Source: Hyunsoonleella pacifica (lineage in GTDB: Bacteria > Bacteroidota > Bacteroidia > Flavobacteriales > Flavobacteriaceae). From it: a DNA stretch of 64,000 bases. A program made the position numbers and the translations under genes. The stretch lies in the NCBI RefSeq assembly GCF_004310335.1, contig NZ_SIRS01000001.1, forward strand, positions 248,001 through 312,000, given 5' to 3'. Shown here piece by piece: positions 8,725 to 59,227 of the stretch. The first letter of the stretch is position 1; each line of letters opens with the position of its first letter. The notes below the pieces were generated by a model that did not search any database, was not told the DNA's origin, and saw only the letters and a list, made by a program, of their open reading frames with translations.

Positions 8725-8791
8725 TTGTTTTCTAAGTTGTAGCATGTTTTACAACGATTGAATTATAGCTTAAATATTAGATTTAAAAAAG

Positions 8792-32135: not shown

Positions 32136-32154
32136 ACAGGCTTATACAGGATGG
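32136..32154 (+). promoter_or_regulatory. CAGGA direct-repeat motif, site 1 (upstream of GH106)
   Basis: ACAGGCTTATACAGGATGG: two CAGG cores exactly 10 bp apart. A good -7 box (TAATTTTG, 32173-32180) follows 18 bp later, and the GH106 ATG is 58 bp beyond the site. Four other genes in the locus carry the same arrangement. Confidence 0.6.
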
Positions 32155-32212
32155 TTTTTTGTAAATTATAGATAATTTTGTTGTGCTTATTATTTGATAC
32201 ACAGACTTTACT

Positions 32213-35200
32213 ATGAGACTTTCCTTTTTCTTAATTCTATACTTGTTTTTAAATATTGTATTTTTTGGTTGTGATTCCTCAAGCCAAGAGGCAGCTACAA
32301 TAACTCCTTCTATTAGCCTTGAAGATTTATCCGTTGGATTTAGATCTCCAGAAAAAAAGTATCGTCCAGAAACTTGGTTTCATCTTAATGGGAACAATAT
32401 AAGTAAAGAAGGTTTAACCTTAGATTTAGAAGCTATTAAAGCAGCGGGTTTACAAGGAATTCATTTATTTAACAAAGCAGGAAAACTTTACCCTAATGTA
32501 AAACCTATAAAAATTTTATCTCCAGAGTGGGAAGATATGATAAGACATGCTGCAGATGAATGCCAACGATTAGGTTTAAAATTTACAATGCAAAACTGCC
32601 CTGGTTGGTCTATGACGGGAGGGCCCTGGGTGCCAGCAGAAGAAGCACAACGAGAAGTTGTTGAGACTACATATCATATTTCTGGCAATCAAAAATTTGA
32701 AGACGTTTTACAAATAGATGCTTTGTACCATACATCAGATTATGACTATAAAGATATTCAAGTATTAGCATTTCCAACACCAGAAGGCGATGATTTGACG
32801 CCTTTAAATCCATCAAAAATTCAGACTAATAATACAATAGTGCCTTGGAAGGATATTTTTAATCCTAATTCAAAAATTATAGTTACACGCAAATCAACGC
32901 GATTAGATAAACCATTAAATGAATATAGAGCTAAAGGTATTTCAAAAATAAGTAATCAAGATACTTGGGTAAAAACAATTTTTGATACCCCAGTTACATT
33001 AAGAACTATTAAATTTCCACAATTGAGACACATTATTATGGGTACGGAATACCCAGTGATAGATGTGGATCTTAAGGTGAAAGCTCGAATTGGTAATAAA
33101 TTGACTGAAATAGCAACCATAAATTTACCAGATGCCAATTGGAATGATAGACGAAAACACCTAACACTAGCAATTCCTGAAACTACATCCAATGAGTTTG
33201 TATTTACATTTGAAGGAAAGCATAAAATAGCCCCTGAATTTATTCGATTAAGTTCAAAACCAAAATTACACAACCACGAAGCCAAAGCAGCAAAAGTGTT
33301 AAGGCGTCTTGAAAAAGATGTACAATATGATTATGCTGAAAATACCATCATTAAATCCAATACCATAATCAACATCACAGATAAAATGACAGCTGAAGGT
33401 AAATTAACTTGGGAAGTTCCTGAGGGAGATTGGACAGTGGTACGTTTTGGACACATAAACATGCGATTAACCAATAAACCAGCAGTTCCTGAAGCAACTG
33501 GTTGGGAATCTAGTAAACTAGATAAATTAGCTATAGAAAACCATTTGCGTAATGGTATGATTGGTAATTTAATAAAAGATGGTGGTCCAATTGGCGATGG
33601 AAAACTTCATGGTTTATTAATTGATAGTTGGGAAAGTCATGTACCAACTTGGACCATGAATTCTGAAGATATGTTTGCTGAATTTGAAACACGAAGAGGT
33701 TACAGCATGAAAACATATTTGCCTGCTACAATGGGATACATTGTAGATGATGCAAAAACAACTACCAAATTTTTAAGAGACCTACGTCATACTATGGATG
33801 AGGTGTTTATAGATAATTTCTTTAAACATTTTGCCACTGTAGCTCACAATATGGGTGCTGAGGTATATACCGAAGGTGCTGGAGGCGAAGTATTACCAGT
33901 AGACCCAATGCGATATTATGGCGTTAGTGATGTGCCCATGACTGAGTTTTGGTATCCAAGAGCACCATCAGTACAAAATGAATATGCTAAGCCTATTTAC
34001 AATGCTGCATCTGCTGCTCATTTATATGATAAACCAGTTTTAGCAGCAGAAGCATGTACACAAGTTGGTGTTAAATGGAATGAACATCCGTTTAGTGTAA
34101 AATATTTAATCGATTATAATTTTACCAAAGGAGTTAATCATTTGGTGTTCCATACGTTTTCGCATACACCACAAACTGATGTCTATCCGGGTTCTAGTTT
34201 TGGTGGACATATTGGGTTTCCATTAGTAAGACAACAAACTTGGTGGCCTTATATGAAAGATTGGACAGATTACTTAAGTAGAAACCAATATGTATTACAA
34301 CAAGGAGAATATGTTGCTGATGTACTTTGGTATTATGGCGATCATTATGAACGTCCGCCATTCGATTTAGATAAATTTCCAAAAGGTTACCGTTTTGATT
34401 ATTTAAATGCAGAAATTTTACAGGATAAACTAAGTATAAGAGATGGTAATATACATGTGCAGGGCGCAGGAGATTATAAAGTTATTATGCTTAGAGATTC
34501 TGAGAAAATGTTGTTATCTACGCTAAAGAAATTAGAAACTTTGGTTGAAGGTGGTGCAGTAATTTTAGGTAACAAACCTATGGAATCTCCTAGTTTGATG
34601 GATGATGAAGATGATTTGAAAGAACTTAAGTCTATTTCTGATAAACTATGGGGAACCTCTAAAAGTGGTGTGAAACAAGTAGGTAAAGGAAAGGTGTATT
34701 GGGGTAAAACTCTGGAGGCAGCTCTAAAAGAAGAAAGTATTGCTCCAGATGTGATTGTGCCTCAAGGTATAGATATCAATTGGATACATCGGGAAATAGA
34801 TGATGCTCATATTTATTTTGTAGCTTCAAAAGAAGATAAACCTGTAAATTTAGCGTTGAGTTTTAGAGTAAATGACCTTTCTCCTCAAATTTGGGATGCA
34901 TTTACGGGAGAACAACAAGATGCTAAAATTTGGAAAACTTTAGAAAATAGAACAAATGTAGCCTTACCATTATCATCAAATGGAAGTGCTATCGTAGTGT
35001 TTTCAAAAAATGATAAAAAACCTTTGGCTTCAAAAGTAACTCACAATAGTAAAGTTATTTTAAATACTGAAACGGGTTGGTCTAAAATTCAAGAGCAGGA
35101 AGTTGTTCCTCACTTATCTTGGAAAGATGACGAATTTATGGCGACTATGCCTGGCAAGTATGTATTTCATCAAAATGAAAAAGAAGCAAGAAAAGAAATT

Positions 35201-35683
35201 TCTGTTGAAGAAATACTGCTTCAAAATAATTGGAAACTATCTTTTGAAGGAGGTTGGGACACTCCAAATATTTTAGAAGTCTCTGAATTAAAATCTTTAA
35301 CTGCACTTGAAAATGAGGCTGTAAAACATTATTCGGGCACAGTGACTTATTCAAAAACGATAAATTTAGATGAAATTGGACAACAAACAGTTATAGATTT
35401 AGGCAAGGTTGCCAATATAGCAGAGTTATGGTGCAATGGTAAAAAAGTAGGTGTAAAATGGGCGCCGCCTTTTGAATTTGATATTAGTGAATATGCTATG
35501 AAAGGTGAAAATACTGTTAATGTTAAAGTAACTAATACCTGGAGAAATCAGCTTATTTACGATAACTCCAGATCAAAAGATCAAAAGAAAACTTGGACGA
35601 CCAATCCGCCTAAGAGAAATGAAACTGAACTAGAGGCTTCTGGATTAATTGGACCTGTGGTTTTGAGGCAAATAACGTATTAA
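32213..35683 (+). CDS. GH106 alpha-L-rhamnosidase lipoprotein, copy 1
   Basis: 1156 residues. The lipoprotein signal ends at FFGC (Cys20) followed by an acidic/Ser tail. The body matches GH106: RPETWFHLNGNNISKEGLTLDLEAIKAAG near the start, the block TMQNCPGWSMTGGPWV, and a C-terminal galactose-binding-like sandwich ending LEASGLIGPVVL. GH106 enzymes hydrolyse alpha-L-rhamnosides by inversion. In the ulvan locus it would remove rhamnose from oligosaccharides made by the lyases. A paralogue is at 59228-62464. It has its own operator motif and -7 box. A 161-bp gap without a terminator separates it from the first PL28 gene. Confidence 0.85.
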   Translation: MRLSFFLILYLFLNIVFFGCDSSSQEAATITPSISLEDLSVGFRSPEKKYRPETWFHLNGNNISKEGLTLDLEAIKAAGLQGIHLFNKAGKLYPNVKPIKILSPEWEDMIRHAADECQRLGLKFTMQNCPGWSMTGGPWVPAEEAQREVVETTYHISGNQKFEDVLQIDALYHTSDYDYKDIQVLAFPTPEGDDLTPLNPSKIQTNNTIVPWKDIFNPNSKIIVTRKSTRLDKPLNEYRAKGISKISNQDTWVKTIFDTPVTLRTIKFPQLRHIIMGTEYPVIDVDLKVKARIGNKLTEIATINLPDANWNDRRKHLTLAIPETTSNEFVFTFEGKHKIAPEFIRLSSKPKLHNHEAKAAKVLRRLEKDVQYDYAENTIIKSNTIINITDKMTAEGKLTWEVPEGDWTVVRFGHINMRLTNKPAVPEATGWESSKLDKLAIENHLRNGMIGNLIKDGGPIGDGKLHGLLIDSWESHVPTWTMNSEDMFAEFETRRGYSMKTYLPATMGYIVDDAKTTTKFLRDLRHTMDEVFIDNFFKHFATVAHNMGAEVYTEGAGGEVLPVDPMRYYGVSDVPMTEFWYPRAPSVQNEYAKPIYNAASAAHLYDKPVLAAEACTQVGVKWNEHPFSVKYLIDYNFTKGVNHLVFHTFSHTPQTDVYPGSSFGGHIGFPLVRQQTWWPYMKDWTDYLSRNQYVLQQGEYVADVLWYYGDHYERPPFDLDKFPKGYRFDYLNAEILQDKLSIRDGNIHVQGAGDYKVIMLRDSEKMLLSTLKKLETLVEGGAVILGNKPMESPSLMDDEDDLKELKSISDKLWGTSKSGVKQVGKGKVYWGKTLEAALKEESIAPDVIVPQGIDINWIHREIDDAHIYFVASKEDKPVNLALSFRVNDLSPQIWDAFTGEQQDAKIWKTLENRTNVALPLSSNGSAIVVFSKNDKKPLASKVTHNSKVILNTETGWSKIQEQEVVPHLSWKDDEFMATMPGKYVFHQNEKEARKEISVEEILLQNNWKLSFEGGWDTPNILEVSELKSLTALENEAVKHYSGTVTYSKTINLDEIGQQTVIDLGKVANIAELWCNGKKVGVKWAPPFEFDISEYAMKGENTVNVKVTNTWRNQLIYDNSRSKDQKKTWTTNPPKRNETELEASGLIGPVVLRQITY

Positions 35684-35844
35684 TCATTCATTTATGGTTG
35701 TTTTAAGTAAGATTTGTTAAAGTTTTGTTTTTTAGCGAAATATTGGCTCATTAAACTAAAATATTAAAGCTAAGTCTACTATTTTAATAGGTTTGTATGA
35801 ATTTTACAATACTCACTGTTTTTGAACAGCATACTTAGGCAGCT

Positions 35845-37407
35845 ATGAAAAAAAGTACTTTTAGATTTTTATTGTTTTGTGGTTTTACAATCTCTTCACT
35901 TTGTCTTACAGCACAAACAGCCCCTGATGAAGATACGAGTTCAGATCTCAGCTGTCCAGCATCTAATGAATTTAGAAATGAAACTAGAACCTCATCAGAT
36001 TTACCAAACCCTGTTAATGTAGGTACTATTGATGATAGAAGTTGTTATGCAGATTACTCAGAAAGTAATGTTTATGATAATACTTGGGGGATATATAACA
36101 TAACATATGGTTCAAACCATTTTCCAGAATCTTTGCAACCTAGAATAGAGCGCTCATTACCTAGATCTCAAACAACAGGCGTAGGGAGTTATGCAAGATT
36201 TACAGGAACTGTTAGAATCCTTGAAGTAGGAGATGCTGGAGGTTTTTTAAGTCAAGATGGTAGTTATTTCATGCAAGCCAAAGGGAAGCATACAGGAGGC
36301 GGAGGATCACCCGATCCTGCTATTTGTTTATATTTGGCGTTACCAATATATGGTACAGGAGTTAACAGTAATGTACAAGTGTCTTTCGATATTTATAGAG
36401 AGCAAATTGTTAACCGAGAAGGGTTTAGAGAATATACTTATTTAACCAATATCCCCAGAGATGTACCCACTGATGTTGAATTGGAGGTAGGTTTTAGGGC
36501 AGACCCAAACAATCCTTCAAAAAAAATACATTATGCTGATGCCGTTATCGGCGGGCAAGTTTTTAATTGGAACATTCCAGAGCCAGAAAGGGGTTTGCAG
36601 TCAGGCATTAGATACGGTGCCTATAGGGTTAAAGGCGGTAGAGCTCAAATCAGGTGGGCAAATACAACTTACGAGATGGAGGAAGTGGAAGGAGAACCTA
36701 TAGAAAATGATGATCCAGATTTAACAGAAGGGGTTTATAGTTTAGAAAATGTTGCTACTGGTCAATTTTTAACCGATGCAGGATTGCCAGCTACTCCAGT
36801 TACTATGAGTAACTCTGATGAAGCGCAAAACACACATTGGACTTTTGTTAACAGTGGTGCATTTTTTAATATTGATAGTGAAACCTTGGGGATACTGCGT
36901 GCACCGGGTTCTGGAGGTCCAGGAGGTCCTTATGTTATTTTAAGTACTGAAAGACCTTCCCCAGAAAGTACAAGTGATAAAATTTGGATAATTCATTACA
37001 ACGACTCAGATGATACATTTAGGTTTGAATCTGGTAGCGGTAGATTCTTATACCATGATACAATTGGGTATGTAACCCATTCTTTTGCTTCAGAAACTGA
37101 TAGTAGAAGTAAATGGAAAGCTAATTTAAAAAATGAGTCATTGAGTGTTTCTAATCAAGAAAGACAATTCGCTTCAATAAAAATATATCCTAACCCAGCA
37201 CAAGATAGATTTACTATAATCTCTAAAAATATTAATATTATGAAGCGTGTCGATATTTATAATATTTTAGGAAAACGAGTGTATCAAAACTTACCAAATA
37301 GTAATGTTTTAGAAGTTGAGAACTCCAGATTTGAAACAGGCGTTTATTTGGTTAAAGCTTTTTCAGTAGACAATAAAGTATTCTATTCTAAATTGATTAT
37401 ACAATAG
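35845..37407 (+). CDS. PL28 ulvan lyase with ulvan-binding-type module and T9SS tail
   Basis: 520 residues. Signal peptide ends near LTAQT. Residues about 27-280 are a PL28 catalytic domain ([47 protein letters not shown]), the family of ulvan lyases that cut rhamnose-3-sulfate/uronic acid links by beta-elimination. Residues about 297-430 are a beta-trefoil-like module found in four copies in this locus. The C-terminus (from [11 protein letters not shown] to KLIIQ) is a type A T9SS sorting domain. A second PL28 protein follows. Only a weak operator-like match (35777-35795) lies upstream. Confidence 0.88.
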
Positions 37408-37476
37408 TTTAGCCATCTGATATAGTTGTCTGTTAAATTGATTTTTTCTTTGAGTTATAAGTCCAGTTGTCAATGA

Positions 37477-37495
37477 GCAGGACAGGTCAGGATAC
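37477..37495 (+). promoter_or_regulatory. CAGGA direct-repeat motif, site 2 (upstream of PL28 copy 2)
   Basis: GCAGGACAGGTCAGGATAC, cores 10 bp apart. A -7-like box TAGTTTTA (37515-37522) follows 19 bp later, and the ATG is 72 bp beyond the site. Confidence 0.6.
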
Positions 37496-37567
37496 CTTTT
37501 TAATCTGCAGTCAATAGTTTTACGTGTTATTTATTTTAATATCAGTATAATAAATACTAAAATAACT

Positions 37568-39577
37568 ATGGAAAAAATTACTTTAAAATCAATATTGTTT
37601 TTCTTTTTTACGTTATGTTCGCTTTTTGTAACCGCTCAAGACGCACCACCTTCTGATGATATCTTCAGACTGAAAAATGTAGAAACAGGGTTATTCTTAA
37701 CCGATTCAGGTTCAAGTGCAACAGCAGTAACCATGACAAATCTAGGGGAAGCAGATCCGAGTACTCATTTTAGGTTTGTACAAAGTGGAGCATTTTATAA
37801 CATTGATAGTGAAATCTTAGGAATATTACGTGCACCAGGTTCTGGAGGTCCAGGAGGCCCTTTTGTAGTTGTTAGTACAACTAAAGCTTCTCCAGCGGCT
37901 GATGCTGATAAAGTGTGGACGATACAACATAATACAACGGACGATACCTATAGATTTCAATCGGGAAATAGTGGTAGATTTATGTATCATGATGCTAATG
38001 GAACGGTAACTCATGTTTCAGTTGCAGCAACAGATGATAGAAGTAATTGGGAGCTTATTCCTTTCGTGGAAATCCCTGTAGTGATAGCTCCAGATGAAGA
38101 TACGAGCACAGATTTAAATTGCCCAGCTTCTGGTGAGTTCGAAAACAATAGTACCAGAAATGTAGATATACCAGGGTCTGTTAACGTGGGGACTGCGGAT
38201 GATAGAAGTTGTTACTCCGATTACTCAGAAAGTAATGTTAATGGGAAAGATTGGGGTGTTTATAATATTACTGCTGGCTCCAACCATTGGGATGCACCAA
38301 ACACCTTACAGCCTAGAATAGAACGTTCTTTAACTAGGTCTGGAGAAACAGGTGTTGGAAGTTATGCAAGATTCACGGGAACATTTAGGATTTTAGAGGT
38401 AGGCGATGCTGGTAGTTTTAGTCAAGATGGAACATACATTGCGCAAGCCAAAGGTAAACATACAGGAGGCGGTGGTCCACCAGATCCTGCCATTTGTTTA
38501 TATAGAGCACATCCTGTTTATGGCACAGGAATAAATGCAGACAAGCAAGTAGCATTTGATATTTATGCCGAGCGTATCTTGGAACGTGGCGGATCAGGTA
38601 GTGGTCGGGAAGTTGTTTTTCTAAAGAGAGTAGACAAAAATGCGGAAATTGATTTTGAACTAGAAGTTGGTTTTAGGGTGGATCCAAGTGATGCTACAAA
38701 GAAAATTCATTATTGCGATGCAATAATAGGTGGAGACGCTTTTAATTTTAATATTCCAGATCCAGAGAGAGGTACAGAATCAGGTATAAGATACGGAGTA
38801 TACAGAGTAAGAGGAGGTCGCGCTCAAATAAGATGGGCAAATACTACCTATCAAAGAGAGGAAGTTGTAGATAATTCTGGTACACCGCCTCCTGATGACG
38901 TTTTTAGATTAAGAAATGTTGCCACAGGGCAATTTCTAACAGCTGTAGGTTCAAGTGCTGAACCAGTTATCATGACCAATTCAGGTGAAGCTCAAAACAC
39001 ACATTGGACTTTCGTTGAGAGTGGTGCGTATTATAATATTGATAGTGAAACTGTTGGTATATTACGTGCACCGGGTGCTGGCTTTTCTGGAGGTGCGTAT
39101 CGTGTTGTTAGTACAGGAGCAGCAGCACCATCAAGTGATACAGATAAAACTTGGACGATAGAATATAATGATGTCGACGATACCTACAGATTCGAATCTA
39201 GAACTGCTGGCAGATATTTGTATCAAGAGGTAGATGGAACTGTTACACATAGTATAGTTCCAGAATCAGATACTAGAAGTGTATGGGAAGCTATTTCAAC
39301 TAGTCAAACTTTAAGTGTTTCTGAAGCAGAACTAAAAACTCCTTCAATGAATATATATCCTAATCCAGCAAAAGAAAGGTTTACAATTGCATTAAAAAAC
39401 ATTAACAATGTTGATGGCTTAGAGATTTATAATATTCTTGGAAAACGTGTATATCAAAGTAAATTTAATGGAAATAACTTAGAGGTTGAAAACACAGCTT
39501 TTAATACGGGTGTTTATCTGGTAAAAGCATATACAACAGATAATAAAGTATTCCATACTAAGCTAGTTATTAAATAA
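37568..39577 (+). CDS. PL28 ulvan lyase flanked by two ulvan-binding-type modules, T9SS tail
   Basis: 669 residues. Signal peptide ends near VTAQD. Order: trefoil-like module 1 (about 31-163), PL28 catalytic domain (about 174-426, same motifs as the upstream lyase including [11 protein letters not shown] and [12 protein letters not shown]), trefoil-like module 2 (about 443-574), T9SS type A sorting domain (about 595-669, [12 protein letters not shown] to KLVIK). A module of this sort has been described as an ulvan-binding domain in a Nonlabens ulvan lyase. Two binding modules on one enzyme would raise its affinity for the polymer. It is transcribed separately from the next gene, with a perfect hairpin between them. 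Confidence 0.88.
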
Positions 39578-39581
39578 AGAG

Positions 39582-39622
39582 CTTTTTGAGAATAAGAAGT
39601 TTAACTTCTTATTCTCAAAAAG
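39582..39622. terminator. Perfect 19-bp hairpin after the second PL28 gene
   Basis: Arms 39582-39600 and 39604-39622 are perfectly complementary, with a 3-nt loop TTA. The arms start with CTTTTTGAG and end with CTCAAAAAG. No long T run follows, so it may act as a terminator in both directions or as an mRNA 3'-end stabiliser. Confidence 0.7.
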
Positions 39623-39716
39623 TATTTACAGAATCATGATATAATTAGGTAATCTTACAATTTTATTTTTTCTAATATTGGTGCTTCACCGAGTTAATAT
39701 CCCGTTTGTCTTAAAA

Positions 39717-39735
39717 TCAGGACACTTCGGGATGC
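39717..39735 (+). promoter_or_regulatory. CAGGA direct-repeat motif, site 3 (upstream of the BNR protein)
   Basis: TCAGGACACTTCGGGATGC, cores 10 bp apart (the second is CGGGA). A perfect -7 box TATGTTTG (39748-39755) follows 12 bp later, and the ATG is 69 bp beyond the site. Confidence 0.6.
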
Positions 39736-39804
39736 TTTTTTCTAATATATGTTTGAATTTTAAATGATTTTAATCATAAAAAAGCTAATAGAAAAGACAT
39801 TGTT

Positions 39805-42270
39805 ATGAAACCACTTCAGTTAATACAAACCTTAATTAAGGACTATATATTTGTTTTAGTACTATATCTTGGTGCTATTTTACTTCCTCTAAAGGCTGCT
39901 GCGCAAGTTACATTTGAAAAAGAAGTTAAAATCACAGATATCGCCTTACATTTTGATGGTAATAAAGTCTCTTCAGATACTGCACCAAACTCGAGCACAG
40001 GATATGATTATGCATTTGGACCTCAAATATCGGCTCATGGCGATTGTATATTCACTTACAAGCATTATGTGTTTATGACTTGGTACAAAGGTGGTAAAGA
40101 AAATCGTAATATGATGTTGACACGTTATAATACAGAAACAGAAACTCAAAAAACAATCGAGTTTCCTCATAAGCATACAGGATTTAGAAATGTATGGTAT
40201 ATAGGAGAATCTCATAATACAATTGGTATAGGTGTTAGCCCTTTAGACGGTACCATACATTTGCTTTTTGACATGCACGCATACACAAGAACAAGACCAA
40301 CAAATGGTAGTTTAGCAAATGACTATTTTAGATATTCTTATTCTAAAAAAAATGCAGCAGATGTACCTGACGAAGAGTTTACATTAGACCAATTTGTAGA
40401 AGATAGTGGTGCAGGAGATTACACACATCTAAGTTTAAATGGAGCTATAGATTATAACGCTTTTTCAGAATTTACATATCCTCAGTTTTTTTTAAATACT
40501 CAAGGAGATTTGTTTTTTTCTATGAGAAAAGGATCAAGTCCTAATGGAGGTTATCATTTTGCTAAATATGATGCGAATACATCAACTTGGTCAAGTTTTA
40601 TAAAATTTGCAGATAAAAATGCAAAAAACTTTGGTGAACCATATAACTGGGGAATGTATGGTAGATTGCAATTTGTTGGAGGGAAAATAGCTATTGGTTT
40701 TCAGAAAAGGTCACAAAACACCAATGATAGATACTTGTATCAAAATGGGTTTTACTTTGCATATTCTGATGACCAAAGTGGAGAAACTGGATGGAAAAAT
40801 TATAAAGGAGAAAGCTTTACAACACCACTTCGTGATGCAGATAAAATTTTAGTATATGAACCTGGAGATTTAGTAACAACTACCCAAAGAAATCAAGTTT
40901 ATATGGTTGGTAGTTTTGACTGGACAATTACAGAAAGAGGAGATGTACATCTAATAGGTAGAGTAAGAGATGATGAAAATAATGTTACTAAAAATGTACA
41001 TACTTATAAAAAGGCTGGAGATACAGAATTTACTACTTCTACCGATTTTATAGGAGGGAATCGTTTATTTACCTCTGGAAACAATATTTATATGATTAGG
41101 TTAAATTCAGGTAGAATTTATATAGAACAATCTTTGGGAGGTACTAATAATTTTAGGAAAGTTTATGAAGCAACTTCAGGTAAACAATTTAGTCATGGTA
41201 GAGCATATGTAAGTAATGGTAAGCTCTATTATTATATGATGGAACAATCTACAGGAGATCAAAGACCTTTATATTTACACATTATAGACTTGGGTATAGA
41301 TGATAGTCCATTTCAAGTATCTCTAATTTCTCCCATAAATAATGAGAGTTATGAAGCAAATAAACCATTAGAAATTTCAGCTGAAGCCTTTAATGATAAC
41401 GGAAGTATTTCTAAAGTAGAATTTATTATTAACAACCAGGTTTTTGAAGAAGATACTACAAGTCCATATATTGTAAATTATACGCCAGATACAGAAGGAA
41501 CATATGCTATAAAAGCAATTGCTTATGATGAAAACAATGCAACAGTATCATCTCAAGAAATTAGTATAGACGTTTTTAGACGAAATGCTAATGATTTATC
41601 AGGAGATATTTACAGATTAAAAAATGTGGCTACAGGTAAATATTTAACATCTTCAGGGTCTTCTATAATAACTAGTGATTCTGGTGAGGGTTCAGACAAA
41701 GAGTGGCAGCTAGTTAAAGCAGAAGTTCCAGGGTTTGATTATTATAATATAGATAGTGAAGTTAGAGGAACTATTAGATTCACAGGTGGCGCTTCTAGCC
41801 CAGGGTTAGTAAGTACTAATTTTGGATCACCAAATACTAATGTGGATAAAATTTGGAGAGTAATTGCAAACAACGATGGTAGTTTTAGTTTTGCGACAAG
41901 AACTAGTGACAGATATCTATATCATGCCTCTAATAATACAATGACACATTCTGCAAATACAGATGATAGAAGTAAGTGGCAAGCTATATCTACAAGTCAG
42001 GCTCTAAGTATACACGATAATAAATTAAATTCATCTTCAATAAAAATATATCCTAATCCAGCTAATGACAGGTTTACAATTGCATTTAAAAATATAAACA
42101 ATATTAAGGGTGTAGAAATTTATAGCATTTTAGGAGAACGTATTTATCAAAATGAATCAAACGGAAGTGATTTGGAGGTTGAAAGTGCTAATTTTAAAAC
42201 AGGTATTTACTTAGTGAAAGCTATTGCAGATGATAATAAAGCTTATCATACAAAGCTAATTATTAAATAA
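39805..42270 (+). CDS. BNR-type beta-propeller protein, probable ulvan lyase (PL24/25/37-like), T9SS tail
   Basis: 821 residues. Signal peptide ends near LKAAAQ. Residues about 30-490 form a BNR_4-type beta-propeller (SAHGDCIFTYKHYVFMTWYKGGKENRNMML, GESHNTIGIGVSPLDGTIHLLFDMHAYT), the fold of the PL24, PL25 and PL37 uronate lyases. An Ig-like domain follows (about 502-592), then one copy of the locus's trefoil-like module (about 600-725) and a type A T9SS sorting domain (KIYPNPANDRF to KLIIK). It is likely a second type of secreted ulvan lyase. The exact family cannot be fixed by eye. A terminator follows at 42293. Confidence 0.75.
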   Translation: MKPLQLIQTLIKDYIFVLVLYLGAILLPLKAAAQVTFEKEVKITDIALHFDGNKVSSDTAPNSSTGYDYAFGPQISAHGDCIFTYKHYVFMTWYKGGKENRNMMLTRYNTETETQKTIEFPHKHTGFRNVWYIGESHNTIGIGVSPLDGTIHLLFDMHAYTRTRPTNGSLANDYFRYSYSKKNAADVPDEEFTLDQFVEDSGAGDYTHLSLNGAIDYNAFSEFTYPQFFLNTQGDLFFSMRKGSSPNGGYHFAKYDANTSTWSSFIKFADKNAKNFGEPYNWGMYGRLQFVGGKIAIGFQKRSQNTNDRYLYQNGFYFAYSDDQSGETGWKNYKGESFTTPLRDADKILVYEPGDLVTTTQRNQVYMVGSFDWTITERGDVHLIGRVRDDENNVTKNVHTYKKAGDTEFTTSTDFIGGNRLFTSGNNIYMIRLNSGRIYIEQSLGGTNNFRKVYEATSGKQFSHGRAYVSNGKLYYYMMEQSTGDQRPLYLHIIDLGIDDSPFQVSLISPINNESYEANKPLEISAEAFNDNGSISKVEFIINNQVFEEDTTSPYIVNYTPDTEGTYAIKAIAYDENNATVSSQEISIDVFRRNANDLSGDIYRLKNVATGKYLTSSGSSIITSDSGEGSDKEWQLVKAEVPGFDYYNIDSEVRGTIRFTGGASSPGLVSTNFGSPNTNVDKIWRVIANNDGSFSFATRTSDRYLYHASNNTMTHSANTDDRSKWQAISTSQALSIHDNKLNSSSIKIYPNPANDRFTIAFKNINNIKGVEIYSILGERIYQNESNGSDLEVESANFKTGIYLVKAIADDNKAYHTKLIIK

Positions 42271-42292
42271 AAATATTCAAAGTATTGAAAGT

Positions 42293-42330
42293 AAAAGCCA
42301 GAGCAAATTTGTTTCTGGCTTTTTAATTTT
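42293..42330 (+). terminator. Terminator after the BNR gene
   Basis: AAAAGCCAGA (42293-42302), a loop of 11 nt, TCTGGCTTTT (42314-42323), then an AT run. It separates the BNR transcript from the next gene, which has its own operator motif. Confidence 0.75.
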
Positions 42331-42331
42331 A

Positions 42332-42350
42332 ACAGGACAAAACAGGATGG
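42332..42350 (+). promoter_or_regulatory. CAGGA direct-repeat motif, site 4 (upstream of the Tat lipoprotein)
   Basis: ACAGGACAAAACAGGATGG, the clearest copy, with cores 10 bp apart. A -7-like box TATCTTTT (42362-42369) follows 11 bp later, and the ATG is 48 bp beyond the site. Confidence 0.65.
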
Positions 42351-42398
42351 CTTATAAAAGTTATCTTTTTAAATTCAACCTGTTTAAATATTTACTAA

Positions 42399-44315
42399 AT
42401 GAAAAGACGTAACTTCCTTCAGTTATCAACATTAGCAGGTGTAGGTTTATCATTGCCAATGGCAGGATTATTGAATGCCTGCAAAAGCCACCCAGAACAT
42501 TCTTTAGAATTTAAAAGTTTAATTACCGATTTGTTAAAAGACTGGAGTGATGCCATGTTAAAACAACAAATTATCAACCCCTCAAACTTAGAATTACACG
42601 GATCGTTAGATTGCCCCTCTTGTGAGCACATACATGGACGCTGTATGGATGCCGTATATCCGTTTTTGTACATGGCAGATAAAACAGGAGATGAAAAATA
42701 TGTTGAAGGTGCTAAGTTGGTCATGACATGGGCAGAAAACAATGTGTCTCAAGAAGATGGTTCATGGACAGTTATAAAAAACCCAAAATCTTGGAAGGGT
42801 ATTACTGTTTTTGGAGCTATTGCTTTAGCTGAAGGGTTGCATTATCATGCTCATGTGTTAGATGAAGTTACTCGTTTAGCCTGGACTAAGCGTCTTGAAG
42901 CAGCAGGACAATACATTTATGATACGTTTACTATCGATTTTACCAACATCAATTACCCAGGAACAGCTGTTTATGGTTTAGATTTAATTGGAGACGTTTT
43001 AAATAGGGATGATTTTAAGACGAAAAGTAAAACTTTGGCTTCAGAAGTAAAATCCTATTTCACTAAAAATGAAGGTTTATTGTTTGGCGAATGTAAAAAG
43101 AGTTCAAGTAAACTAAGTGAAAAAGGATTGCATGGTGTAGATTTAGGCTATAATGTAGAAGAAACTTTAAATAGTTTGGTCATGTATGCCATAAAGCACA
43201 AAGATGAAGAATTACTTCAAATTTTAACCAAATCGTTAAATAGTCATTTAGAATTTATGATGCCAGATGGAGGTTGGGACAATAGTTGGGGTAACAGAAT
43301 GTACAAATGGACCTATTGGGGTAGTAGAACTTGCGATGGAAGCCAATTGGCTTTTGGAATGATGTCACACATAAATCCTGCATTTGGTACAGCAGCTGTA
43401 AAAAATACCGAACTTTTAAAAAGCTGTACTTCAGATGGCTTAATTCATGGAGGTCCTCATTATGTTTCAGCAGGAGTATTGCCTTGTATTCATCATACAT
43501 TTACACACGCAAAACCACTAACAGCACTTTTAGATCATTGGGAACATTTACCTGAAATAAACAAAAATGCAGCATTACCAAGAGCAACAGCAGATGGTGT
43601 AAAGCATTTTAAAGATTTAGATGTGTACCTATTTTCTAGAGGAGATTGGAGAGGAACTGTAAGTGCTTACGATGCTGAATATCATTATAAGAATGATTAT
43701 CGTCAAGCATCAGGTGGTGCTTTAGGTGTTTTATACCACAATAAAGTTGGTTTAATCTGTGCTGCTAGTATGGCAAAATATGAAATGGTTGAAAAAAACA
43801 ATCAACAAGTACAACCTGGTAAAGATATTTGTTTAACACCACGTATAGAAAGCTATAAAGATGAGATTTGGTATACTAATTTGTATGATTTACCAGCTAC
43901 AGTTAGTTCTAAAGATGAAAATGGGACTATTAAATTAGTAGCAGATGTTGCACTAAAAAATGTTAATAGAAAAGAAATTGAAGGAACAGCTTCTAAATTT
44001 GATATTACTTATGAGTACAATACAAACGAAACCGCAATTTTTGTAAAAACATCTCAAAAGATTACCACACCAACATCTTTTGTGTTACCTATTGTTTCTC
44101 CAAATAGTGAAAAGGTCACTATTGTAAATAAAAATGAAATTACAATACAAAAACCAGAAGGATTGGTTACTATTAAAGCCAATGCGCCTATTAAAACCAA
44201 GGAGATAGAAGGAAAAAGAACATTTAACATGGTTCCTGGAGTAGAAGCTTTGCCTTTAGAAGTGTTTTTTAAAGACGATATAGAAAGATTAGAGATAACA
44301 ATTCAAGTTAGTTAA
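42399..44315 (+). CDS. Tat-type lipoprotein, toroid-fold uronate lyase or dehydratase-like
   Basis: 638 residues. The N-terminus has a twin-arginine motif (KRRNFLQLS) and a lipobox ending at LLNAC (Cys28), so it should be exported folded and lipid-anchored. The first ~380 residues are helical with repeated W/Y-rich segments (CEHIHGRCMDAVYPFLYMAD, DGGWDNSWGNRMYKWTYWGSRTCDG, IHHTFTHAKPL), as in (alpha/alpha) toroids of polysaccharide lyases. The C-terminal ~230 residues look like a beta-sandwich. In ulvan loci two kinds of protein fit: PL40-type ulvan lyases and the oligosaccharide dehydratase known from a Formosa ulvan locus. I cannot choose between them. Its stop overlaps that of the convergent AraC gene. 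Confidence 0.6.
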   Translation: MKRRNFLQLSTLAGVGLSLPMAGLLNACKSHPEHSLEFKSLITDLLKDWSDAMLKQQIINPSNLELHGSLDCPSCEHIHGRCMDAVYPFLYMADKTGDEKYVEGAKLVMTWAENNVSQEDGSWTVIKNPKSWKGITVFGAIALAEGLHYHAHVLDEVTRLAWTKRLEAAGQYIYDTFTIDFTNINYPGTAVYGLDLIGDVLNRDDFKTKSKTLASEVKSYFTKNEGLLFGECKKSSSKLSEKGLHGVDLGYNVEETLNSLVMYAIKHKDEELLQILTKSLNSHLEFMMPDGGWDNSWGNRMYKWTYWGSRTCDGSQLAFGMMSHINPAFGTAAVKNTELLKSCTSDGLIHGGPHYVSAGVLPCIHHTFTHAKPLTALLDHWEHLPEINKNAALPRATADGVKHFKDLDVYLFSRGDWRGTVSAYDAEYHYKNDYRQASGGALGVLYHNKVGLICAASMAKYEMVEKNNQQVQPGKDICLTPRIESYKDEIWYTNLYDLPATVSSKDENGTIKLVADVALKNVNRKEIEGTASKFDITYEYNTNETAIFVKTSQKITTPTSFVLPIVSPNSEKVTIVNKNEITIQKPEGLVTIKANAPIKTKEIEGKRTFNMVPGVEALPLEVFFKDDIERLEITIQVS

Positions 44316-45193
44316 AAATTGGGTGTAGAGTTTCTAAACTTTCCTGGAGCCAGACCTGTTTTTCGTTTAAATAATCTGTTGAAATAAACGTCAGATTCAA
44401 AACCCAATTCAAAAGCAATCTCCTTTTGAGACTTATTCGTATTTAGTAATAATTCTTTAGACTTTTCAATTTTAAGTAATAGATAATATTGCAAAGGAGC
44501 AATACCAGTTTGTTTTTTAAAATCTATTCTAAATTTAGAATAACTAACTCCCAAATGTGTAGCGATTTCTTTTAAATTGATGGTGTTATTTATGTTTTTA
44601 TACATGACGCTTTTTGCTAAAGAAACCATAGAGTTTAACTGATCTATATTGCTCCCTGCACTTTTAATATTATGTAATTCTGCCATTAATTGAAGACAAA
44701 CTCCAGAGGCTAACCTCTGATAACCATAAGATTCTTCATCAAATAATTTAAAAAGGGTATTAAAGTAATTTAAAACAGAAGGTTTGTTACATTTAGAAAT
44801 AATAGGAGCATCTGCATTAAAAAATCCATTAGTTAAAAACTGATTGGCTATTTCTCCAGAAAAACCAACCCAGCGTTCTGTCCAACCACTAGTTTTATTA
44901 GGCCTATACCTGTGCCAAACTTCAGGAAATAATAAGAAAACATCACCATCAGTAACCTTTAATTTTCCAGTTGAGTTACTTTCAAAAACACCCTCTCCTT
45001 TAGTAATTAATACGATATGAAATTCATTAAGGACACGTCCTCTATCCCACGTGAAAAAATATTGATCAGGATGATCTTTGGAAGGGTATAATGTGTGCTT
45101 TTTAATAACATTTCGTCCTAAATTATTGATAAAAAAACCCCAAGACTTATCTTTATTAGTAGTGATTAGATATTTTTTATAAGAATTATTCAT
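44312..45193 (-). CDS. AraC-family regulator of the ulvan locus
   Basis: 293 residues. An N-terminal cupin-like sensor domain (HIVLITKGEGVFES, DGDVFLLFPEVWHRYRPN) is followed by a two-helix-turn-helix AraC domain (INLKEIATHLGVSYSKFRIDFKKQTGIAPLQYYL and QKEIAFELGFESDVYFNRLFKRKTGLAPGKFR). It is divergent from the first GH78 gene, whose operator motif (45295) lies between them, and overlaps the upstream lipoprotein gene tail to tail by 4 bp. AraC proteins bind direct repeats about one helical turn apart, so it is the first candidate for recognising the 10-bp-spaced motif found across the locus. The ligand is probably a rhamnose-containing sugar (inference). Confidence 0.85.
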   Translation of the reverse strand: MNNSYKKYLITTNKDKSWGFFINNLGRNVIKKHTLYPSKDHPDQYFFTWDRGRVLNEFHIVLITKGEGVFESNSTGKLKVTDGDVFLLFPEVWHRYRPNKTSGWTERWVGFSGEIANQFLTNGFFNADAPIISKCNKPSVLNYFNTLFKLFDEESYGYQRLASGVCLQLMAELHNIKSAGSNIDQLNSMVSLAKSVMYKNINNTINLKEIATHLGVSYSKFRIDFKKQTGIAPLQYYLLLKIEKSKELLLNTNKSQKEIAFELGFESDVYFNRLFKRKTGLAPGKFRNSTPNF

Positions 45194-45294
45194 GTCATTT
45201 TGTATAACTAATATATCAAAATGTCAATTGAAAATATCATTCTTATCCAAGAAATTTACAATCAATAACAATTAATTAGAAAATAAGCATTTTA

Positions 45295-45313
45295 CCAGTA
45301 TTTAACAGGATAG
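45295..45313 (+). promoter_or_regulatory. CAGGA direct-repeat motif, site 5 (upstream of the GH78 operon)
   Basis: CCAGTATTTAACAGGATAG, cores 10 bp apart, the first weaker (CAGTA). A -7-like box TATATTTA (45333-45340) follows 19 bp later, and the ATG at 45381 is 67 bp beyond the site. It lies between the operon and the divergent AraC gene. Confidence 0.55.
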
Positions 45314-45380
45314 TAAATTATAAGATTAAAAATATATTTACGAAGCTTTAAAAATAAGATGTTTGTTTACCCTTAAAAAT

Positions 45381-48300
45381 ATGAAAACTCAATCATTTCG
45401 AAAAAGTTGGTCTAAACTAACAACTTCTTTTATTATTTTATTTTTTCTATGTGCATTTTCTGGATGTGATTCTTCATCAGATATAAAAATAGAAGCACTA
45501 AGAACGGAGTATCGTTCCAATCCTTTAGGAATAGATAATACAGTACCCAGACTTAGTTGGAAAATACTTGATGAATCTCATATACGAGGTCAAAAACAAA
45601 CTGCTTATCAATTACTTGTTGCTAGCAGTATAAAAAATCTTGAAGAGAATATAGGAGATATTTGGAACACAGGAAAAGTTACTTCAAGTCAGTCTGTAAA
45701 TGTGGTTTATGATGGAGTAGATTTAAATTCTTCAAAACAGTATTTCTGGAAAGTAAAAGTTTGGGATGTTTCCAATAAAAGTTCTCAATGGAGTGAGATC
45801 GCAAACTTTTCTATGGGATTACTTGAGCAATCTGATTGGAAAGGCGAATGGATATACAAAAAAGATCAAAACAAAAAAGACCATAACTGGTATAGAAAGA
45901 ATTTCTCCTTAAATGAAGTACCACAGTCGGCGTTCGTTCATGTGGCTTCTTTTGGTTATCATGAAGTGTATATTAATGGTAAAAAAGTTGGAGATGAGGT
46001 CATGAATCCTGTGAATTCTTCACTTAAAAAAAGACTTCCTTATTTGACTTATGATATCAATTCTTATTTGCAAGAAGGCGATAATGTTATTGCAATATGG
46101 CACGCAGCTGGATGGACTAGATGGGGTAGAATAAAGACTTATTATGATGCACCATTTGTTCTTAAGGCTCAGGCCGAAATCAGCACAGAATCAGGTGCTG
46201 TTACATTAACAACTGATACATCTTGGAAATGTAAAAAAAGTTACAGTTCATACAGTGGACCTTGGGATATTTTAGATTTTGGAGGCGAAATTATTGATGA
46301 ACGCTTGCGTGAAGATAATTGGAATACCGCCGATTATGATGATTCTAATTGGGTTAATGCAACGGTTTTTGACAATAGTAAAGCCAAAGAAGTGGGGATT
46401 GCGGATATCAACCTTGGCCCTAAAGGGGCAGTTGTGGTTCCAAGTACCGATGCCAATCCGCCAACTAGCAAAATTACCGCAACCTTAAGTGCGCAAATGG
46501 TAGAACCGCAGGTAAGGTATAAACAAGTAAACCCTGTTGGTGTTGCAAAAAATGAAGAAGGCAACTATGTCATTGATATGGGCGAAAATTATACAGGCTA
46601 TTTTGAAATGAACCTATTTAATGGAAAAGAAGGAGATACGGTTACTTTTGAAGTAGCAGATCATAAAGAAGTAGCCACATCTTGGGAGCAAAGAAGTAAA
46701 TATATATTTGATGAAACAGGTACCGGCCATTTTACCAACCGTTTTAATTTGGCTGGTGGACGTTGGGTTACGGTTTACGGTATTGATTATAAACCAGAAT
46801 TAAAAGATATCAAAGGCTATGTAATTACTAATAATCGAAAGCAAATCAGTCAATTTAAAAGTTCTAGTAAATTACTAAATCAAATTTATCAGGTAAATTT
46901 AAATACTTACATAGCAAATACTATTGATGGTATTTTGGTAGACTGTCCGCATCGTGAACGCCGTGGTTGGGGAGAAGTAACAGTTGCAGCTATGTATGGC
47001 GATGCATTACCAAACTTTGAGAGTGGAGCGTACATGATGCAATACGCACAATTTATGCAAGATGCGCAAGCCGATGATGGTAAAATGAGAGCGGTAATCA
47101 ATGGCGACGATTTTGAATTTTTAATGTGGATGGCAAATAGCCCAATTACCATTTGGGAAACCTATAGAATGCTGGGCGATAAAAAACTTTTAGAGAATCA
47201 CTATCCAACTCTACAAAAATGGATGCATTGGTTATACGAACACTCAGATTATGATACTAGTGAGGGATTAAAAATAGGAACACGTGGTACATTAGAATTT
47301 CCAGGTTTAGGAGATTGGTGTACCCCAAGAGGTAATTTTTGGAGTTCTAGTAACTCTCCAGAATCAGCACATTTTAACAATTGTGTTTACGCATTTATGT
47401 TAGAGTCTGCCTTAAAAATAGCTAAAACCTTAAGAAAAGAAGAAGATGCCAAAATCTATGCAAAACGTTTAGAAGTACAACGCAAAGCAACCCATAAAAA
47501 ATTGTACGATGCTAAGACAGGAAAATATGGTCTTGGGCATCAGGTAAATCAAGCTTTTGCATTACTTTCTGGAGTTACCCCAAAATCTGAACAAGAAAAG
47601 GTGTACAATAATTTAGTAGATCAGGTATTGTACAAATTTCCCTATTATGACACAGGTAGTTCAGGACAAGCTTTGTACACTCGATATTTTATAGAACATG
47701 GAGAGCGTATGGATTTAATTTACGAGCTATTAAAAGACAAACGACATCCAAGTTATGGTTACTTTTTAGAGCAAGGGAAAACCGTTTGGCCAGAACGATG
47801 GTCTGCCATTGGGAATAGTCAAATCCATACGTGTTATACTGGAATTGGAGGTTATTTTATCAAAGGTTTTGCTGGAATTCGTCCAGATAAATTACATCCA
47901 GGAATGCAACATTTTATTGTTAAACCAGTTCCTGTTGGCGATTTAACTTTTGCTAATGCAACCCATGAATCTATGTATGGAACTATTGTTTCTAATTGGA
48001 AAATAAATAACCAAGAAGCTACGTTTCACATTGAAGTTCCAGTAAATACATCGGCAAAAGTATATGTACCTGCCACTAAAAAAGAGGTTGTTTTTGAAAG
48101 CGACAGTGTAGCAGATCAATCAAACGAGATCACATACATTGGTACCGAAAAAAATGATACAGTTGGCAATTATATCATTTATGAAGTAGGTTCAGGTATC
48201 TACAATTTTAAAGTTTCAGAATTACCAGAAGTAAGCTATCCAGATCCAATAGAGCAGCCAGATAACTTAGCATTAATAGGACGTATGAATGCTTCATCAA

Positions 48301-48650
48301 TGACCATTCAATCAGAAAAACTACCAGTTTTTGAGGCGTTTCGTGCAAACGACGAAAACTACGAAACGTTTTGGAAAGCCAAAGGATCATTAAATGAATG
48401 GATAGAAATAGAATGGTTTAAACCACAGACATTTAATACAATAGTGCTTAAAGAAAATGGCGATAATATATCAAACTATACACTTCAATTTCTAGAGAAT
48501 GGTAAATGGAAAAATATTTTAAGTGGAACTTCTTGTGGAGCCAATAAAAGCCATAATTTTAAAGCAATTACCACATCAAAATGTAGGTTGCTAATATCAG
48601 AAGCAAAGAGAAAACCAATGATTTCTGAATTCCAAATCTATAAGAAGTAG
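45381..48650 (+). CDS. GH78 alpha-L-rhamnosidase lipoprotein, type A copy 1
   Basis: 1089 residues from the ATG at 45381 (the frame is open from a TTG at 45363). The lipoprotein signal ends at FSGC before a DSSSD tail. N-terminal Ig-like and beta-sandwich domains (YRSNPLGIDNTVPRLSWK, DWKGEWIYKKDQ) lead to the (alpha/alpha)6 domain with the GH78 motif DCPHRERRGWGEV at residue 521. Asp521 and Glu526 match the catalytic Asp and general acid, but the usual WxGD is WGEV. TVWPERW supplies the likely base Glu. The C-terminus is an F5/8-type carbohydrate-binding domain. First gene of a seven-gene rhamnosidase operon, with a near twin at 51148. Confidence 0.9.
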   Translation: MKTQSFRKSWSKLTTSFIILFFLCAFSGCDSSSDIKIEALRTEYRSNPLGIDNTVPRLSWKILDESHIRGQKQTAYQLLVASSIKNLEENIGDIWNTGKVTSSQSVNVVYDGVDLNSSKQYFWKVKVWDVSNKSSQWSEIANFSMGLLEQSDWKGEWIYKKDQNKKDHNWYRKNFSLNEVPQSAFVHVASFGYHEVYINGKKVGDEVMNPVNSSLKKRLPYLTYDINSYLQEGDNVIAIWHAAGWTRWGRIKTYYDAPFVLKAQAEISTESGAVTLTTDTSWKCKKSYSSYSGPWDILDFGGEIIDERLREDNWNTADYDDSNWVNATVFDNSKAKEVGIADINLGPKGAVVVPSTDANPPTSKITATLSAQMVEPQVRYKQVNPVGVAKNEEGNYVIDMGENYTGYFEMNLFNGKEGDTVTFEVADHKEVATSWEQRSKYIFDETGTGHFTNRFNLAGGRWVTVYGIDYKPELKDIKGYVITNNRKQISQFKSSSKLLNQIYQVNLNTYIANTIDGILVDCPHRERRGWGEVTVAAMYGDALPNFESGAYMMQYAQFMQDAQADDGKMRAVINGDDFEFLMWMANSPITIWETYRMLGDKKLLENHYPTLQKWMHWLYEHSDYDTSEGLKIGTRGTLEFPGLGDWCTPRGNFWSSSNSPESAHFNNCVYAFMLESALKIAKTLRKEEDAKIYAKRLEVQRKATHKKLYDAKTGKYGLGHQVNQAFALLSGVTPKSEQEKVYNNLVDQVLYKFPYYDTGSSGQALYTRYFIEHGERMDLIYELLKDKRHPSYGYFLEQGKTVWPERWSAIGNSQIHTCYTGIGGYFIKGFAGIRPDKLHPGMQHFIVKPVPVGDLTFANATHESMYGTIVSNWKINNQEATFHIEVPVNTSAKVYVPATKKEVVFESDSVADQSNEITYIGTEKNDTVGNYIIYEVGSGIYNFKVSELPEVSYPDPIEQPDNLALIGRMNASSMTIQSEKLPVFEAFRANDENYETFWKAKGSLNEWIEIEWFKPQTFNTIVLKENGDNISNYTLQFLENGKWKNILSGTSCGANKSHNFKAITTSKCRLLISEAKRKPMISEFQIYKK

Positions 48651-48677
48651 ATTAAAAAAAGAACACATAAACTACTT

Positions 48678-51146: not shown

Positions 51147-51147
51147 T

Positions 51148-54435: not shown

Positions 54436-54449
54436 TAACTAACTCAAAA

Positions 54450-56825: not shown

Positions 56826-56851
56826 TTTTTTGAAAAGAATAAGTACAGAAT

Positions 56852-59212: not shown

Positions 59213-59227
59213 TTTTACAACATAATT

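What the first reader, a model, noticed from the sequence alone, without database searches (positions are those of the whole stretch)
32136..45313. A 10-bp-spaced CAGGA direct repeat precedes five transcription units of the ulvan locus
Seen directly: 19-bp sites at 32136, 37477, 39717, 42332 and 45295, all on the + strand, all 48-72 bp before a start codon, each with two CAGG-like cores exactly 10 bp apart (consensus NCAGGAC-NNN-WCAGGATRS; positions 2, 4, 12, 14-17 invariant). A TAnnTTTG-like box follows 11-19 bp later in every case. The sites precede one GH106, one PL28, the BNR protein, the Tat lipoprotein and the GH78 operon. A spacing of one helical turn is what AraC-type DNA-binding domains use, and an AraC gene lies in the locus. 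This looks like the operator of the whole regulon, placed to replace the -33 element.
Basis: partly seen in the sequence, partly recalled or inferred. Interest (0 to 1): 0.8.

Follow-up and report, generated by a model that had tools for sequence, protein, structure and literature searches.

The report
Rhamnose-linked master switch for ulvan genes
A short doubled DNA word sits at a fixed place in front of many of the gene sets that a marine bacterium uses to eat the seaweed sugar ulvan, and across related species it goes together with a regulator sitting beside the genes for burning rhamnose rather than with the regulator first suspected.

Summary
The five sites are real. A matrix built only from five other species finds exactly these five places in the window at 12 bits or more. 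They belong to a larger regulon: the same site stands before PL28, GH2, GH3, GH78, GH106, sulfatase and rhamnose genes over about 175 kb of this contig, on a second contig, and before an unlinked PL28 gene. The refined operator is CAGKAYAGWA-CAGGATAS, 19 bp, TAnnTTTG. A GntR/LacI-type chimera, encoded divergently from the rhamnose operon, fits: all 61 genomes with three or more sites have it, none of 318 genomes without it reaches three, and 22 of 22 mixed genera agree. Binding, activation and inducer (rhamnose or a product) are inferred, not shown. New variant of a known kind: a monosaccharide-type regulator on a 10-bp direct repeat running a polysaccharide regulon.

The parts
32137..32154 (+). 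operator site 1, CAGGCTTATACAGGATGG, before the GH106 gene 32213-35683
32173..32180 (+). -7 box TAATTTTG, 6 of 6 matches (offset 20)
37478..37495 (+). operator site 2, CAGGACAGGTCAGGATAC, before the PL28 gene 37568-39577
37515..37522 (+). -7 box TAGTTTTA, 5 of 6 (offset 21)
39718..39735 (+). operator site 3, CAGGACACTTCGGGATGC, before the BNR protein gene 39805-42270
39748..39755 (+). -7 box TATGTTTG, 6 of 6, at offset 14; the usual offset 21 scores 4 of 6
42370..42377 (+). -7 box TAAATTCA, 4 of 6 at the usual offset (TATCTTTT at offset 13 scores 5)
45296..45313 (+). operator site 5, CAGTATTTAACAGGATAG, before the GH78/GH106 gene run starting 45363
45333..45340 (+). -7 box TATATTTA, 5 of 6 (offset 21)
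44312..45193 (-). AraC-family gene (AraC_binding plus HTH_18); probably an ulvan-locus accessory regulator, not the general reader of this motif
32213..35683 (+). target: GH106 alpha-L-rhamnosidase
37568..39577 (+). target: PL28 ulvan lyase
39805..42270 (+). target: BNR_4 protein with ulvan-lyase beta-trefoil domain
42399..44315 (+). target: 638-aa protein without Pfam match
45363..62464 (+). target gene run, taken as one operon from its spacing: three GH78, two genes with rhamnosidase hairpin domain, GH106

Best explanation
The 18-bp direct repeat is the operator of a GntR/LacI-type chimeric regulator (GntR winged helix plus a sugar-binding Peripla_BP_3 domain; in this genome C1:443472-444533, with paralogues C1:412988-414028 and C32:168672-169673) that belongs to the L-rhamnose catabolic operon. 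When rhamnose or an early product of its breakdown is in the cell, two subunits bind head to tail on the two CAGGA half-sites one helical turn apart. The site is centred near -40.5 and covers the -33 region of a sigma-A promoter that has a good -7 box but no -33 TTG. The bound protein takes the place of the -33 contact and switches on the ulvan operons together. Shown here: the sites, their fixed spacing, their placement, and co-occurrence with this regulator. Inferred: binding, activation rather than repression, and the inducer.
For: In 397 genomes of the family, 61 have three or more strict composite sites and all 61 have the chimera (E up to 1e-90); 0 of 318 genomes without it reach three, and I saw no row of that table with more than one control match per strand. 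In 22 of 22 genera with both kinds of member, the carriers have more sites (tables from 47 and 48). G045, G265 and G268 have exactly one protein of this family at E up to 1e-15, no like hybrid regulator and no like AraC, yet 20, 22 and 14 loose sites. A site of 18 bits or more lies in the fetched locus (about 4 kb) of the chimera in 26 of 37 cases, against 0 of 8 loci of more distant chimeras (1 of 8 at 16 bits), 6 of 20 loci of hybrid regulators (about 7 kb) and 7 of 12 loci of the AraC, which lies among ulvan genes. All 6 examined carriers with fewer than three strict sites have a site beside the chimera. It is divergent from RhaEW (NCBIfam TIGR02632 over its cut-off), then a RhaI-like isomerase and a kinase below their cut-offs and an FMN-dependent dehydrogenase; RhaEW also adjoins it in G001, G212, G396 and G127, and adjoins homologues in 10 of 24 loci of the class-wide search, one of them over 80 aa only. 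The helix reads SRDT[VI]E[KR]AY in 17 of 17 A/B-type rows shown and differs in 7 of 8 controls. 105 of 106 sites are outside ORFs although ORFs cover 94% of the bases; TTG nowhere exceeds 5% between site and -7 box; no third half-site. In F. psychrophilum the -7 box lies at -12 to -5 (PMC9723704, passages), which gives the -40.5 centre.
Against: GntR regulators usually bind inverted repeats and mostly repress; the half-sites here are direct. Five loci of other families carry the same SRDTVEKAY helix but no site of 15 bits or more, and only 2 of 24 loci of the class-wide set have a site of 18 bits, so the helix alone does not set the motif. Eleven of 37 chimera loci show no site of 18 bits within about 1.5 kb; this genome's own is 17.9 bits. 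Two of 19 motif-poor genomes in the 39-genome set carry it, and 18 of 79 carriers overall have fewer than three strict sites. Co-occurrence could be with the rhamnose operon rather than the regulator, or with an unseen regulator. At most five first-look candidates per genome were scored in the 397-genome protein search. Which of the three paralogues acts here is open. No binding or expression data exist here.
Confidence: 0.65

Rival explanations
1. Same regulator, opposite sign: the GntR/LacI-type chimera is a repressor that sits over the -33 region and leaves when the rhamnose-derived ligand binds.
For: Most GntR-family sugar regulators repress (recalled). A site at -49 to -32 would block polymerase too.
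Against: A blocked but otherwise strong promoter should keep a -33 TTG and need not keep a fixed spacing; no TTG is enriched there and the spacing is fixed.
Confidence: 0.18
2. The hybrid two-component regulator of the locus (C1:414238-418290, Reg_prop, HisKA, receiver, AraC-type domain) reads the site, sensing ulvan oligosaccharides in the periplasm.
For: It lies in the locus, a site follows it directly at 418381, and orthologues occur in 15 of 20 motif-rich genomes. Three such proteins with similar DNA-binding ends exist here. 6 of 20 of their loci hold a site of 18 bits.
Against: Absent, also by its DNA-binding end alone, from 5 of 20 motif-rich genomes (G045, G070, G132, G265, G268) and present in 5 of 19 motif-poor ones by whole protein, 3 of 19 by a close DNA-binding end. 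Known operators of this class repeat at about 21 bp (PMC3878776, passages).
Confidence: 0.06
3. The AraC gene at 44312-45193 in the window reads the site.
For: It is in the locus, next to site 5; all 13 genomes that have it among 39 are motif-rich; 7 of 12 of its loci hold a site of 18 bits.
Against: Missing from 7 of 20 motif-rich genomes; in four of these (G045, G070, G265, G268) I saw the same motif before homologous ulvan genes. 42 of the 61 motif-rich genomes have no PL28.
Confidence: 0.02
4. An unlinked regulator not looked at here, distributed like the rhamnose operon, reads the site.
For: Only AraC-type and GntR-chimera proteins were followed across genomes; other classes were screened by crude sequence patterns in the fetched loci alone. 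Two near-identical half-sites 10 bp apart also suit DeoR-type proteins (DeoR-type RhaR sites repeat at 10-11 bp, PMC3870299, passages) or OmpR/PhoB-type ones (recalled).
Against: It would have to match the chimera in 61 of 61 genomes and 22 of 22 genera, while sites flank the chimera's gene even where they are rare.
Confidence: 0.09

Closest known systems
Hybrid two-component (AraC-type) regulons of Bacteroides thetaiotaomicron (PMC3878776, passages seen)
   Same: direct-repeat operators before polysaccharide genes in Bacteroidota
   Different: their two sites are on average 21 bp apart and the sensor is periplasmic; here 10 bp, no element enriched at 20 bp, and the regulator is absent from five motif-rich genomes
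Rhamnose regulators RhaR: AraC-type in Bacteroides, DeoR-type in other phyla (PMC3870299, passages seen)
   Same: control of rhamnose catabolism; the DeoR-type sites are direct repeats of 10-11 bp, in one tested case four in tandem
   Different: another protein family (GntR plus LacI-like domain), and the regulon reaches from rhamnose catabolism out to a whole algal polysaccharide locus
AraR of Bacillus subtilis (GntR helix plus LacI-type sugar domain; a solved arabinose-repressor helix domain, 4egy, was matched by sequence at 1.5e-07)
   Same: domain architecture (AraR's recalled)
   Different: AraR is a repressor on palindromes (recalled); here direct repeats at an activator position
MocR/TauR-type GntR activators (PMC5320631 and PMC4254191, passages seen)
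   Same: GntR helix, direct-repeat operators, activation, gene often divergent from its target
   Different: their repeats are two or three turns apart and their ligand domain is an aminotransferase fold; here one turn and a periplasmic-binding-protein fold
FucR (BT1272) and ManR (BT2103), GntR-family sugar regulators of B. thetaiotaomicron (Table 2 of PMC3878776, passages seen)
   Same: GntR family, monosaccharide pathway, same phylum
   Different: FucR's reconstructed regulon is a single operon; sequences not compared here

Membership tests
Operator of an AraC-type hybrid two-component regulator | two conserved sites about 21 bp apart | tested here: not met
   only a 10-bp repeat; 5-of-6 half-site matches at -20 and +20 in 1 and 4 of 105 sites
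Operator of an AraC-type hybrid two-component regulator | the cognate regulator present wherever the motif is dense | tested here: not met
   missing in 5 of 20 motif-rich genomes
Operator of the window's AraC protein | regulator present wherever the motif is dense | tested here: not met
   missing in 7 of 20
GntR/LacI-type chimeric regulator (AraR-like architecture) | GntR helix at the N end and Peripla_BP_3 domain at the C end | tested here: met
   PF00392 and PF13377 in C1:443472-444533 and C32:168672-169673; in C1:412988-414028 PF13377 is just at its cut-off
GntR-family operator | inverted-repeat operator, usual for GntR outside MocR | tested here: not met
   two direct half-sites in the 105-site consensus
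GntR-family regulon | regulator and motif occur together | tested here: met
   61 of 61 against 0 of 318; 22 of 22 genera; 18 of 79 carriers have fewer than three strict sites
Rhamnose (RhaR-type) regulon | regulator beside rhamnose catabolic genes and site before them | tested here: met
   RhaEW and RhaM over NCBIfam cut-offs; RhaI-like and kinase below theirs; site at C1:444822, 17.9 bits; G001, G212, G396, G127
Rhamnose (RhaR-type) regulon | response to rhamnose or a derivative | not testable with these tools
   needs ligand assay
Class II-like activator promoter | site centred near -41 at fixed distance from the -7 box, -33 element missing | tested here: met
   -7 box position taken from F. 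psychrophilum (PMC9723704, passages); no start site mapped in these genomes
Class II-like activator promoter | transcription depends on the bound regulator | not testable with these tools
   needs reporter and deletion

The most novel reading that the evidence does not exclude
A GntR/LacI-type sugar regulator binds head to tail on a one-turn direct repeat, stands in for the -33 contact of Bacteroidota sigma-A, and so puts a polysaccharide regulon spread over some 200 kb in several loci under one intracellular monosaccharide signal (rhamnose or its first products), by-passing the oligosaccharide sensors thought to rule such loci. The same switch runs other rhamnose-linked loci in dozens of genera.
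Probability: 0.55. Interest if true: 0.72.

Novelty: new variant of a known kind. Interest (0 to 1): 0.62.

Why it matters
Ulvan is a main cell-wall sugar of green-tide algae, and its enzymes have been studied in detail. In what my searches listed (titles, starts of abstracts, and passages of two papers that mention ulvan) I saw no operator or regulator for the locus. A single site matrix now predicts much of the regulon, including genes on other contigs, and names a testable regulator. If the end product rhamnose rather than an ulvan oligosaccharide is the signal, induction needs a basal supply of enzymes or rhamnose from elsewhere, which changes how these bacteria are expected to respond to blooms. 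The fixed site-to-promoter geometry would also be a ready-made sugar-controlled promoter for Flavobacteriaceae.

Tried and rejected
AraC of the window and the hybrid two-component regulator as readers: rejected by co-occurrence. An alternative sigma factor: set aside because the -7 box is the ordinary TAnnTTTG. A third or fourth half-site as part of the basic operator: rejected; tandem arrays exist at only a few promoters (C1:354034-354073, G163, G265, G070). A LacI, LuxR, LytTR or two-component gene shared by the five hybrid-less loci: none seen with crude sequence patterns; this was a weak screen, and its GntR pattern missed the chimeras that Pfam finds. Loose pattern counts in the window alone are uninformative. 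The helix as sole determinant of the motif: not upheld in other families (no helix was recognised in 13 of those 24 loci). No structure was predicted: the prediction tool's text does not list loci from the genome search among the sequences it accepts, so I did not submit them.

Rows dropped before counts: from the 42 genome hits I kept 19 for the first matrix (two of three overlapping tandem hits and the 21 hits outside C1:280-455 kb and C32:140-158 kb left out). In one search own sites were limited to C1:280-456 kb and C32:113-171 kb, only scores of 18 bits or more were kept, and overlapping tandem sites were counted separately. Of the 18 carriers with fewer than three strict sites only 6 were looked at. 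Of the five chimera-free genomes with two strict hits, G020 carries a 42% chimera with the SRDTVEKAY helix that misses my cut-off; in G246 only a distant chimera locus was seen; the other three were not examined. The binomial value uses boundaries chosen after seeing the hits and is only descriptive. The PL28-negative genomes of the 39 were taken from the first ones listed, not drawn at random.
Full report
1. The observation. To avoid circularity I built a weight matrix from 79 sites of five other genomes and scanned the window: at 12 bits or more it returns the five sites and nothing else; dinucleotide shuffles give 0.2 hits on average at 14 bits.

2. The regulon. The window is C1:248001-312000 of a 4.13-Mb genome. 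The 17-mer with one mismatch has 42 hits in the genome against 9 for the reversed pattern; 18 lie in C1:280-454 kb, 3 in C32:140-158 kb and 21 elsewhere. In the two stretches sites stand directly before genes for GH106, PL28 (four genes), BNR, GH2, GH3, GH78, a sulfatase, a sulfatase-GH78 fusion, a Por_Secre_tail protein and others. A further site of 21.3 bits stands just before an unlinked PL28 gene on C23, while another PL28 gene at C1:832 kb has none. In seven regions of six genomes 105 sites of 18 bits or more are outside and 1 is inside ORFs of 90 aa or more, although such ORFs cover 895,526 of 954,000 bases.

3. Conservation. In the fetched ulvan loci of G268, G265, G132, G045 and G070 (720 kb in all) 79 such sites lie between genes. 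Before the homologue of the 638-aa protein at 42399 (73-81% identical) the site is CAGGACAAAACAGGAYRG in this genome and in all five others, spacer included. Consensus of 105 sites: CAGKAYAGWACAGGATAS, 19 bp, TAnnTTT. TTG stays at or below 5% at every position between site and -7 box, and half-site matches at -20 and +20 are at background.

4. Which protein reads it? Among 39 genomes chosen by PL28 status (20 with, 19 without), 20 are motif-rich by the strict pattern: 19 of the PL28 genomes plus G011, which has no PL28; G246 has PL28 and is motif-poor. The hybrid two-component protein of the locus is in 15 of these 20 and in 5 of the other 19; the AraC of the window is in 13 of 20 and 0 of 19; the GntR/LacI-type chimera is in 20 of 20 and 2 of 19. 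In the hybrid-protein search at most 16 candidates per genome were scored; a search with its DNA-binding end alone, with all candidates scored, found no close match in the five genomes that lack it (best 1.0e-19 to 1.5e-24, none in G268), whereas the 15 motif-rich carriers have 1.1e-43 or better. G268 has three HTH_18 domains in its whole genome, and G268, G265 and G045 each have a single member of the chimera family at E up to 1e-15.

5. The larger test. In 397 genomes of the family I counted strict composite sites and searched for the chimera. Of 61 genomes with three or more sites 61 have it; of 318 genomes without it none reaches three; 18 of the 79 carriers have fewer than three. Relatedness does not explain this: 22 genera have members with and without the chimera, and in all 22 the carriers have more sites. 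Forty-two of the 61 have no PL28, so the system is not specific to ulvan. In carriers with few strict sites a site of 18.7 bits or more still stands beside the chimera's gene (6 of 6 examined). More distant chimeras, 36-42% identical, have no site of 18 bits (0 of 8; 1 of 8 at 16 bits) and, in 7 of 8, a different helix. For comparison, 6 of 20 hybrid-regulator loci and 7 of 12 AraC loci hold a site of 18 bits. Against the reading, five loci of other families have the same helix and no site, and only 2 of 24 class-wide loci have one of 18 bits.

6. The rhamnose link. The chimera C1:443472-444533 is divergent from a gene over the cut-off for bifunctional rhamnulose-1-phosphate aldolase/dehydrogenase, followed by a RhaI-like isomerase and a sugar kinase (both below their models' cut-offs) and, further on, an FMN-dependent dehydrogenase resembling lactate dehydrogenase (below its NCBIfam cut-off, over the Pfam one); a rhamnose mutarotase gene lies inside the regulon. 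The pairing with RhaEW holds in G001, G212, G396 and G127, but not in the fetched stretches of G159, G061 and G115, where the chimera adjoins other genes and still has a site. RhaEW adjoins homologues of the chimera in 10 of 24 loci of the class-wide search. Rhamnose or an early product is therefore the likely signal; this was not tested.

7. How it likely works. With the -7 box at -12 to -5 as mapped in Flavobacterium psychrophilum (PMC9723704, passages), the operator spans about -49 to -32, centre -40.5. A fixed spacing, a good -7 box and no -33 TTG are the marks of a promoter that needs an activator next to polymerase. GntR proteins usually bind inverted repeats, but the MocR branch often binds direct repeats and includes activators (PMC5320631, passages), so head-to-tail binding has precedent; the one-turn spacing is tighter than the two or three turns reported there. 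I hold activator at somewhat over three to one against repressor.

8. What is known. Hybrid-regulator operators in Bacteroides repeat at about 21 bp; RhaR there is AraC-type (PMC3878776, passages). DeoR-type RhaR sites repeat at 10-11 bp (PMC3870299, passages). The paper on the ulvan locus of Formosa agariphila of which I saw passages uses its enzymes with E. coli RhaS as rhamnose sensor (PMC12858550). My literature searches cover an open-access library only, and I saw listings and passages, not whole papers.

9. Verdict. New variant of a known kind.

Noticed in passing
C1:354034-354073 of the window's genome (L033, outside the window): Four tandem copies of CAGGATACTG in 10-bp register before a PL28 gene; similar three- or four-copy arrays stand at single promoters in G163, G265 and G070. 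Their purpose is unexplained.
   Followed up: partly
44312-45193: Among the 39 genomes searched the AraC gene occurs only in PL28-bearing, motif-rich ones (13), so it may be an ulvan-specific second layer of control.
   Followed up: partly
C32:123261-127322 and C32:82804-86874 (L043, L044): Two further hybrid two-component regulators; the DNA-binding ends of the three are 49-62% identical to one another.
   Followed up: partly
C1:412988-418290 and genomes G145, G044, G374, G152, G339, G071, G271, G383: A GntR/LacI-type chimera gene often lies directly beside the hybrid two-component gene, as if the two were inherited as a pair.
   Followed up: no
G011:C18: A genome without a PL28 match but rich in sites has the chimera and a 48% identical hybrid regulator whose match holds one TAG; another glycan is the likely substrate.
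   Followed up: no
39718-39762 and 42333-42377: Two of the five window sites have their best -7 box 7-8 bp closer than the usual offset; these two promoters may differ in strength or use.
   Followed up: partly
7729-8745 and 9596-10903: A RhuM/Fic-domain gene and a phage-type integrase lie some 20 kb before the ulvan genes.
   Followed up: no
G159, G061, G115 (L259-L262, L267, L268): Here the chimera and its site adjoin a conserved pair of genes of about 435 and 950 aa instead of the rhamnose operon; the pathway was not identified.
   Followed up: no
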